DNA of 64,000 nucleotides from Dromiciops gliroides (taxonomy: Eukaryota; Chordata; Mammalia; Microbiotheria; Microbiotheriidae): the NCBI RefSeq assembly GCF_019393635.1, contig NC_057861.1, positions 57,859,532 to 57,923,531 of the forward strand, given 5' to 3'. The position numbers and the translations under genes are program-made. Positions 388-4,655 of this stretch are shown in pieces. Each line of letters begins with the position of its first letter. Within the stretch, counting starts at the first letter, position 1. The notes under the pieces are model-generated. The model made no database searches. It had not been told where the DNA came from and was given only the letters and a program-made list of their open reading frames with translations.

Positions 388-453
388 CCCCCCCCCCCAG
401 CCTGCTTACCCACTCATTCACACTGCCCCCCCCCCAGCCTGCTTACCCACTCC
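388..453 (-). repeat. 37-bp tandem duplication spanning the splice donor of the occludin-like exon
   Basis: A C-run followed by AGCCTGCTTACCCACTC occurs twice, offset by 37 bases (end of first copy 414, of second 453). On the coding strand this duplicates TGAGTGG/GTAAGCAGG-type donor sequence and a G-run. Confidence 0.85.
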
Positions 454-605
454 TCCACATTGGGACCCTCCACTGTAGCCAGGGGTTTGTCCCAGAAGAT
501 GTTGGGCTTCCCATACTTCCAGATCTTGTGACGGGTCTTCTGGGCAAAATAACAGATGACACAGAGGAGGACAACGATGAGGAAGCCACAGACAATGGCC
601 ACGGC
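447..605 (-). CDS. Occludin-like exon: span 4 and proximal C-tail
   Basis: 53 codons in phase 0: AVAIVCGFLIVVLLCVICYF forms span 4, AQKTRHKIWKYGKPNIFWDK the juxtamembrane tail, and it ends VEGPNVEEW before a GTAAGC donor at 441-446. Human occludin has AIAIVLGF...KTRRKM...SNILWDK...NVEEW in register. A second identical donor lies 37 bases further on. No frameshift here. Confidence 0.9.
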
Positions 606-3600: not shown

Positions 3601-4655
3601 TCAAATCTGACCTCAGACACTTGACACTTACTAGCTGTGTGACCCTGGGCAAGTCACTTACCCTCATTGCCCTGGCCCCCCCCAAAAGAGTTTTAATTAA
3701 TAATATCACTTACCTCCCCAAGTTGATAAAGATTAAATGAGAAATTTATAAAGTGCTTAGCACAGTGCCTGGTGCATAATAAGGTGCTTAATAAATACTT
3801 TTCTCATCCCTTCCTTAAATGAGTTGCCCAGGGTCACACAGCTGATAAGTGACTGAGTGTCAGGTCTTCCTGACTCCCAGTTCTGAGTTCTATTCACTGC
3901 CCACTGGCCCACTGAGTTTCCTTCTGGCTGTGCCGGGGGATTCTGGGATTGTGTGATCTTCCTGTGACTCTTACCTCTTGGGGGTCCACCATGCAGTAGT
4001 GGTAAAGGTACTGGTTCACAATCCCCCTGCCACTGGTGACATCATTTGGTTGCAGAGCATCAACATCTGGTTGTAGTAGAGACTCCCCGAGCTGGACCCC
4101 AGCCCTGCCCGGGGGTTCACCCCGACTACGTAGACAATGGAGGCGAGAGCATCACAAAGGCTAGCAGGCCACTGAGCACGGTGACCAGCAGGGTAGAAGC
4201 GGCGAGAGCGGGCCCCCGATGCTTTGGACAGACTGGCTATGAGCAGCCCCAGGGACACCAGGAAGCAGAGGACCGCCATGGCGATCATAAAGCCATTGGC
4301 CGCCCGTGGATTGGTCAGGCCACCATAGTAGCCACCATAGTAGCCACCGTAGTAGCCATTATAGTAGCTTCCCAGGCCACCCCCATAGCCCAGGAGACCG
4401 CTGCCACTGCCATAGTAGTCCCAGGCTAATGTGGAGGCCACACAGGCAAAGATAGTCAAACATAGGAAGACCACAAATCCCTGCAGGATGCGGATGATGC
4501 CTGGAGGGACCGCCACTGGTAGAAATGCTGGGGAGGGACATCTGCCAGGTAGAAGGAGCCAAGAGGGCCAGAGGGAGGTGGATAGTCATAGCGGGAACTG
4601 GGGTGGCCATAGCCTGTGTAAGACCTTTTCTCGTACATCATGGGCAGGGGGCTAC
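447..4655 (-). CDS. Occludin-like MARVEL-domain gene next to OCEL1 (gene-level entry, partial)
   Basis: A four-pass tight-junction-type membrane protein related to occludin. Exon 3975-4655 carries the N-terminal cytoplasmic tail, spans 1-3 and loop 2; exon 447-605 carries span 4 and the start of the C-terminal tail. Hallmarks: PPGIIRIL before span 1, FACVASTLAWD at its end (identical in occludin), a Tyr/Gly-rich loop, TNPRA, GSLYYNQ, loop-2 cysteines in LCNQM and YLYHYC, DPQE at the splice site, then KPNIFWDK and NVEEW. The human OCLN exon boundary falls at the same DPQE/A position. The C-terminal occludin/ELL part, if present, lies beyond base 1. About four one-base indels break the large exon as written, so it is either a pseudogene or the consensus has errors. 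It is distinct from OCLN, whose first loop is GYGYG-type. Confidence 0.85.
943..1044 (+). mobile_element. L2 tail
   Basis: GGGAGCTCCTTGAGGGTAGG, GCTTAGCACAGTGCCTGGCA and TAGTAGGCATTT. Confidence 0.6.
1046..1185 (-). mobile_element. Short tRNA-derived SINE (WSINE1-like)
   Basis: Reversed copy: AATGAGGGTTAAGTGGCTTT to CCACTGTGCCACCTAGCTGC. The reversed head encodes the recurring [15 protein letters not shown] frame responsible for many spurious ORFs in this window. Confidence 0.9.
1330..1560 (+). repeat. Imperfect CCA/CCT/CAC trinucleotide-rich tract
   Basis: Cryptically simple DNA (CACCACCACC, CTTCTTCCTCC) in the occludin-like intron. Three overlapping open frames here are composition artefacts. 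Confidence 0.7.
2045..2195 (-). mobile_element. MIR-type fossil
   Basis: CACTCAGCTACCCAGGGTCA, GAGTGAGGATTTGACCC. Confidence 0.5.
2261..2431 (+). mobile_element. Short SINE
   Basis: Complete, with a (CAAAA)n tail to about 2431. Confidence 0.92.
2500..3014 (+). mobile_element. Marsupial L1 3' end, closed by a SINE
   Basis: GTGGCAAAGGATTGGAGG, AATTGGGAAATGGCTGAACA, TGAAGTAAGCAGAACCAGGA and CATATCAGACT-type blocks match the abundant marsupial L1 3' region. The minus-strand SINE at 3015 is inserted near its end. Confidence 0.7.
3015..3166 (-). mobile_element. Short SINE in an L1 end
   Basis: Complete; T-run 3018-3028. Flanks TGGAACTATTTT and ATGGAATTATTTT are the target duplication. Confidence 0.92.
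3289..3318 (-). mobile_element. Short SINE head fragment
   Basis: Only the last 30 bases, GTCTATCCACTGCGCCACCT to GCTGCCCC, are clear. Confidence 0.6.
3463..3540 (+). mobile_element. Older SINE, truncated by the next copy
   Basis: GGCAGCTAGGTGGCCCACTG to TTCAAATCC, cut where the copy at 3541 begins. Confidence 0.75.
3541..3688 (+). mobile_element. Short SINE
   Basis: Complete; ends in a C-rich then A-rich tail. Confidence 0.9.
3817..3920 (-). mobile_element. MIR-type fossil beside the occludin-like splice donor
   Basis: GAGTTGCCCAGGGTCACACA to TGACTCCCAGTTCTGAG; ends about 50 bp from the exon. Confidence 0.55.
3975..4655 (-). CDS. Occludin-like large exon: N-tail, spans 1-3, loop 2
   Basis: The acceptor is TGTTCCAG, the donor GTAAGA, and the first in-frame ATG pair is at 4636-4641 (MMYEKRSYTGYGHPSSRYDY). 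Blocks in order: FYLADVPPQHFYQW; PPGIIRILQGFVVFLCLTIF; a loop with three YYGG repeats; NGFMIAMAVLCFLVSLGLL; RSRRFY; LLVTVLSGLLAFVML; ASIVYVVGVNPRAG; LMLCNQM; VNQYLYHYCMVDPQE. The blocks fall in shifting frames: one-base discrepancies are needed near 4525, 4190, 4155 and in the G-run near 4020. The 5' phase leaves room for an upstream coding exon, but initiation at the ATG pair is equally possible. Confidence 0.85.
4325..4365 (-). repeat. 12-bp coding repeat in the first loop of the occludin-like protein
   Basis: CCACCATAGTAG-type units in tandem on the plus strand encode repeated YYGG on the minus strand. Confidence 0.85.

What the first reader, a model, noticed from the sequence alone, without database searches (positions are those of the whole stretch)
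447..4655. An extra occludin-like MARVEL gene beside OCEL1
Two minus-strand exons encode an occludin relative with its own first-loop composition (YYGG repeats), FACVASTLAWD, TNPRA, paired loop-2 cysteines, span 4 and NVEEW, and a splice site at the occludin DPQE/A position. Human 19p13.11 has USE1-OCEL1-NR2F6 with no such gene, as far as I know. This suggests a tight-junction gene kept in marsupials and lost in placentals.
Basis: partly seen in the sequence, partly recalled or inferred. Interest (0 to 1): 0.87.

Follow-up and report, generated by a model that had tools for sequence, protein, structure and literature searches.

The report
Second occludin gene beside OCEL1
A marsupial-like genome carries, next to OCEL1, a broken-looking second occludin (tight-junction) gene that appears to match the occludin first found in chicken, suggesting that "occludin" in birds and in humans may be two different sister genes.

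Summary
Observation confirmed: minus-strand exons at 4655-3975 and 605-447 encode occludin MARVEL spans 1-3 and 4. It is not OCLN: intact OCLN lies 381 Mb away beside MARVELD2; the only other match in this genome is a processed OCLN copy.

The gene is closest to chicken occludin (sequence recalled, not fetched): 64% identity, against 46-50% to own and recalled human OCLN; site patterns 85:3:3. So chicken occludin appears orthologous to this gene rather than to human OCLN. OCEL1 groups with tricellulin/MARVELD2: OCEL1 plus this gene mirrors the MARVELD2-OCLN pair.

Correction to "kept in marsupials": here the frame is broken about five times in 1,453 coding bases, against none seen in 5,229 control bases. 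Probably a recent pseudogene; local assembly error is not excluded. Placental loss was not tested; no other vertebrate genome was searchable.

The parts
3975..4655 (-). MARVEL exon: probable start ATG at 4641, cytoplasmic N-terminus, spans 1-3, both extracellular loops, ending DPQE with donor GTAAGA
   Evidence: Pfam MARVEL E 1.4e-8 on one frame. The occludin-like reading changes frame four times. An upstream exon was not looked for
447..605 (-). Span-4 exon to NVEEW, one open frame, AG acceptor and GT donor. Five more exons (tail, ELL domain) lie left of base 1 in L009 (C1:57851532-57859531), with the stop codon at about C1:57852238 and AATAAA at about C1:57851951
   Evidence: L009 exons; end points
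15890..19815 (-). OCEL1 (neighbour, same strand, upstream); limits approximate, taken from open frames and matches
   Evidence: Pfam Occludin_ELL E 1e-10; tblastn with recalled human OCEL1 E 7e-13; PDB best hit MARVELD2; tree
31906..50840 (-). USE1 (synteny marker); matched exons unbroken
   Evidence: Pfam Use1 E 5.5e-20; tblastn with recalled human USE1

Best explanation
The locus is a second occludin gene (call it OCLN2), an ancient duplicate of OCLN and the orthologue of chicken occludin. Shown here: an intron-bearing MARVEL + ELL gene with OCLN's intron positions, lying between OCEL1 and NR2F6, and grouping with a recalled chicken occludin. Inferred: a tandem tricellulin-occludin pair was duplicated early in vertebrates (most simply in 2R); one pair is MARVELD2-OCLN, the other OCEL1-OCLN2. 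Where intact, its product should work as chicken occludin does: a four-span tight-junction protein whose tyrosine/glycine-rich first loop and cysteine-paired second loop face the neighbouring cell and whose ELL coiled coil ties it to ZO proteins (recalled function). In the genome at hand it is probably a recently inactivated copy (about 65% likely real; otherwise local base errors). The stated confidence is for the family, site and orthology, not for the pseudogene step.
For: Seven exons in all; 6 of 6 donors are GT and 7 of 7 acceptors AG. Donor phase equals OCLN's at 6 of 6 junctions; the acceptor keeps register at 5 of 6. Read with X at frame changes, Pfam gives MARVEL 9.6e-21 and Occludin_ELL 2.5e-27. 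Own genome: 3 matches to the MARVEL exon, this gene, OCLN and a processed OCLN (13 candidates scored). Identity 297/465 (63.9%) to recalled chicken occludin, 206/449 (45.9%) to own OCLN, 224/451 (49.7%) to recalled human OCLN; own OCLN to human 429/519 (82.7%). In 441 columns 85 sites pair window with chicken, against 3 and 3 for the other pairings. Trees: 100/100 full length, 98.8/99 ELL alone. The recalled chicken sequence has 504 residues and 55,863 Da; I recall the published figures as 504 and 55.9 kDa. OCEL1 with MARVELD2: 98.7/100, PDB E 3.1e-22 against 0.0051 for occludin; same head-to-tail order as MARVELD2-OCLN. Passages of the review PMC3542074 say that chicken occludin induced tight-junction-like structures in Sf9 cells and raised resistance in MDCK cells.
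Against: The chicken sequence is recalled, not fetched, and was recalled after I had read the window; two library searches for its loop peptides found no paper. Searched with it, the highest-scoring place in the genome is the intronless OCLN copy on C4 (305.5 bits, 41% identity) and the second is the OCLN exon (192.7 bits, 49%); this gene's best piece scores 134.4 bits (59%), its matches being split by introns and frame breaks. About five frame breaks speak against a working product here. OCLN has an extra first coding exon for which no counterpart was sought. 2R is inferred from two paired loci only.
Confidence: 0.85

Rival explanations
1. The same second occludin gene, but functional in this species, its frame breaks being assembly errors. 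(Not exclusive of the best explanation; it contests only the pseudogene step.)
For: The open stretches hold no in-frame stop; 13 of 13 splice sites, the stop codon and AATAAA are in place. Changes at sites fixed in the other three sequences number 32 here against 28 in chicken, so no sign of long neutral drift. By eye most breaks fit one-base changes in short runs.
Against: No frame break seen in 5,229 matched coding bases of OCLN, MARVELD2, NR2F6, USE1 and OCEL1 of the same assembly against about 5 in 1,453 here; equal-rate P 0.0005, or 0.002 if only four are counted. By eye one break fits a four-base loss at least as well as a run-length slip.
Confidence: 0.33
2. A recent tandem, segmental or processed copy of OCLN.
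For: Same domains and intron phases as OCLN. The genome does hold one processed OCLN copy, on C4.
Against: Introns present; 46% identity to own OCLN although own OCLN is 83% identical to recalled human OCLN; groups with chicken.
Confidence: 0.02
3. A mammal-specific fast-evolving duplicate of OCLN whose likeness to chicken is chance, convergence or an artefact of my recall.
For: The chicken sequence is recalled; only five sequences are in the full-length tree.
Against: 85 sites against 3 and 3, including the tail stretches QDETATLAYSEKPTSP and KRSP[ED]YQSKK. Without any chicken sequence, 46% identity to own OCLN beside 83% for own against human OCLN already puts the split before the marsupial-placental one, unless the gene evolved very fast.
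Confidence: 0.06

Closest known systems
Chicken occludin (founding occludin; sequence recalled)
   Same: 64% identity over 465 sites, shared tail stretches and start MxxKxSY, clade support 100/100
   Different: Frame broken here; first residue of YETDYTT is C here
OCLN of the same genome (C1:438.97-439.02M) and recalled human OCLN
   Same: Domains, intron positions, loop cysteines
   Different: 46-50% identity; OCLN is flanked by MARVELD2, is unbroken and has an extra first coding exon
Tricellulin/MARVELD2 and OCEL1
   Same: MARVELD2 shares MARVEL + ELL; OCEL1 shares the ELL domain
   Different: 24% identity to recalled human MARVELD2; OCEL1's ELL is tricellulin-like
Teleost occludin paralogues (zebrafish oclna/oclnb; sea bream ocln1-3)
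   Same: More than one occludin gene or transcript per species (passages of PMC11315906, and PMC8722709)
   Different: Relation to this gene not tested

Membership tests
Occludin family (MARVEL + ELL) | Four-span MARVEL domain | tested here: met
   PF01284 E 9.6e-21, model 5-135 of 135, on the X-joined reading; 1.4e-8 on one frame
Occludin family (MARVEL + ELL) | C-terminal Occludin_ELL domain | tested here: met
   PF07303 E 2.5e-27, 1-101 of 101, on the X-joined reading; PF07303 2.2e-9 on the ELL exon alone; three occludin chains lead the PDB search, best E 5.7e-27
Occludin family (MARVEL + ELL) | Tyr/Gly-rich first loop, paired Cys in second loop | tested here: met
   62% G+Y in 42 residues; LCNQ and HYC present
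Occludin family (MARVEL + ELL) | Tight-junction localisation and ZO binding | not testable with these tools
   needs cells
OCLN orthologue | Synteny with MARVELD2 and nearest to OCLN in a tree | tested here: not met
   OCLN and MARVELD2 are at C1:439M; trees
Chicken-type occludin clade | Groups with chicken occludin apart from OCLN | tested here: met
   with a recalled chicken sequence; ranking by score does not show it
Chicken-type occludin clade | Same chromosomal neighbours in chicken | not tested
   no chicken genome to search; chicken OCLN on chromosome 28 is recalled
Functional protein-coding gene in this species | Unbroken reading frame | tested here: not met
   frame from the ATG ends after 61 codons; about five frame breaks; assembly error not excluded

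The most novel reading that the evidence does not exclude
Occludin is two ancient genes under one name. The founding chicken occludin and the 1996 rat-kangaroo cDNA belong to this locus; human, mouse and dog occludin are the sister gene OCLN. The whole tricellulin-occludin pair was duplicated, and placentals keep of the second pair only OCEL1, the tail of a tricellulin. The ~50% divergence of chicken and rat-kangaroo occludin from placental occludin (recalled) would then be hidden paralogy, and this lineage is caught losing the gene independently.
Probability: 0.75. Interest if true: 0.78.

Novelty: new member of a known kind. Interest (0 to 1): 0.7.

Why it matters
Occludin was first described in chicken (recalled), and early functional tests used the chicken protein (passage of PMC3542074). 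If it is not the orthologue of human OCLN, comparisons between species need rereading: a review passage already attributes discordant loop-peptide results to chicken against human sequence (PMC8618722). It would also explain OCEL1 as a tricellulin remnant, and it predicts an occludin in birds, reptiles and some marsupials that placentals lack.

Tried and rejected
Rejected: OCLN itself, a processed copy, a recent segmental copy. One scan each of genome contigs (span-4 exon) and viral contigs (MARVEL exon) for stray vertebrate DNA found no relative; metagenome contigs were not scanned. A PDB search with the MARVEL exon gave 2 chance hits, E 0.3 and 0.36. Ten paper searches: no statement that chicken occludin is a paralogue of human OCLN came up in the listings and passages seen. 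Four (6, 26, 32, 33) found 0 papers. I opened 1 of 2 listed, 1 of 6, 1 of 1, 0 of 15 listed of 16, 0 of 12 listed of 96 and 2 of 25 listed of 60, each only by passages around search words. The 1993 chicken and 1996 rat-kangaroo papers are not held; their content is recalled, and I saw only their titles in a reference list. A bacterial promoter scan is irrelevant.

Full report
What is there. On the minus strand 4655-3975 and 605-447 encode an occludin-like protein from the probable start ATG (4641) through span 3 to DPQE, then span 4 to NVEEW. AG and GT splice sites bound both exons.

Left of base 1. Fetched DNA (L009) continues the gene on the same strand: VKNVSGDAGTQDETATLAYSEKPTSP..., a second tail exon with CETDYTT, the ELL domain in three exons ending AYDKVRS and a stop, and AATAAA. 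NR2F6 follows on the opposite strand in L010 and L011.

It is not OCLN. The genome's OCLN is unbroken at C1:438.97-439.02M, beside MARVELD2 at 439.08-439.10M. In this genome the MARVEL exon has three matches at E 0.1 or better (13 candidates scored): itself, OCLN (46%) and an intronless OCLN copy on C4 (39%), which has stops and a frame break. Donor phases agree with OCLN at 6 of 6 junctions, acceptor register at 5 of 6, so this is an old intron-bearing duplicate. OCLN has a further first coding exon (MSSRPFESPPPYRPDE...); no counterpart was sought here, and the ATG at 4641 begins like recalled chicken occludin. Pfam on the X-joined reading: MARVEL 9.6e-21, Occludin_ELL 2.5e-27. Three occludin chains lead the PDB search with its ELL exons.

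Which occludin. Identities: to recalled chicken occludin 297/465 (63.9%), own OCLN 206/449 (45.9%), recalled human OCLN 224/451 (49.7%); own OCLN to human 429/519 (82.7%); chicken to human 238/479 (49.7%). Over 441 columns, 85 sites split window+chicken from own OCLN+human; 3 and 3 support the other pairings. Trees: 100/100 full length with five sequences, 98.8/99 for 74 ELL columns. The chicken letters were recalled after I had seen the window; their length and mass, 504 and 55,863 Da, equal the published figures as I recall them, but library searches for its loop peptides found nothing. A genome search with that sequence ranks the intronless OCLN copy first (305.5 bits, 41%) and the OCLN exon second (192.7 bits, 49%); this locus's six pieces have 59, 66, 58, 49, 71 and 57% identity against 49, 39 and 52% for OCLN's three. 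Scores there reward unbroken length, so I rely on the alignment and trees, but this ranking is against me as it stands.

The paired locus. OCEL1's ELL domain joins MARVELD2 (98.7/100) and hits MARVELD2 structures at E 3.1e-22 against 0.0051 for occludin (two exons joined by X). OCEL1 then this gene, head to tail, mirrors MARVELD2 then OCLN. A passage of PMC2805614 says occludin and tricellulin are in tandem on human chromosome 5. The simplest history is one duplication of the pair; that this was 2R is inference.

State of the gene. The occludin-like reading of the MARVEL exon changes frame four times, and the ELL exon joins its predecessor one base out of register compared with OCLN: about five breaks in 1,453 coding bases. 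In the same assembly no break was seen within 5,229 matched coding bases of OCLN, MARVELD2, NR2F6, USE1 and OCEL1 (recount; one search had 5,286 by a rougher tally); equal-rate P 0.0005, or 0.002 for four breaks. The control covers matched exon pieces only; short exons and the N-terminal half of OCEL1 are not in it. The open stretches hold no stop, and changes unique to this lineage (32) hardly exceed those unique to chicken (28), so constraint seems to have lasted until recently. I read it as a young pseudogene (about 65%), with local base error the rival.

Literature. I recall that the 1996 cDNA study found human, mouse and dog occludin about 90% alike but only about 50% like chicken and rat-kangaroo; only its title was seen. 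That odd result fits this locus: it is 50% identical to recalled human OCLN, whereas this genome's true OCLN is 83% identical. Several occludins are reported in zebrafish and sea bream (passages); their relation is untested. Ten searches of an open-licence library, of which most listed papers were not opened, brought up no report of chicken/human paralogy.

Verdict. The observation and the placement are right, 'kept in marsupials' needs correcting for this genome, placental loss is untested here, and the relation to chicken occludin is the more interesting result.

Noticed in passing
window 15890-19815 (OCEL1): OCEL1's ELL domain is tricellulin-like, suggesting that OCEL1 is the tail of a MARVELD2 duplicate.
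   Followed up: partly
L001/L014, G000:C4:190.899M: Intronless OCLN copy with stops and a frame break: a processed pseudogene.
   Followed up: partly
G000 C1:203.918M (L007), C2:61.519M, C4:428.356M: Further Occludin_ELL matches with internal stops, perhaps pseudogenes of ELL-type genes.
   Followed up: no
window 14853-15171, 28524-28827, 42197-42568; L009 2650-3300: Tandem-like arrays of one shared ~31-base unit (CTTAGAACCCAGGATGTCAGAGCTGGGAGGG, up to 7 errors): 5, 6, 10 and 14 copies found; 2 more at 4680-5010 just upstream of the gene.
   Followed up: partly
L009 3909-3907: The occludin motif YETDYTT reads CETDYTT, losing a tyrosine shared by own OCLN and recalled human and chicken occludin.
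   Followed up: no
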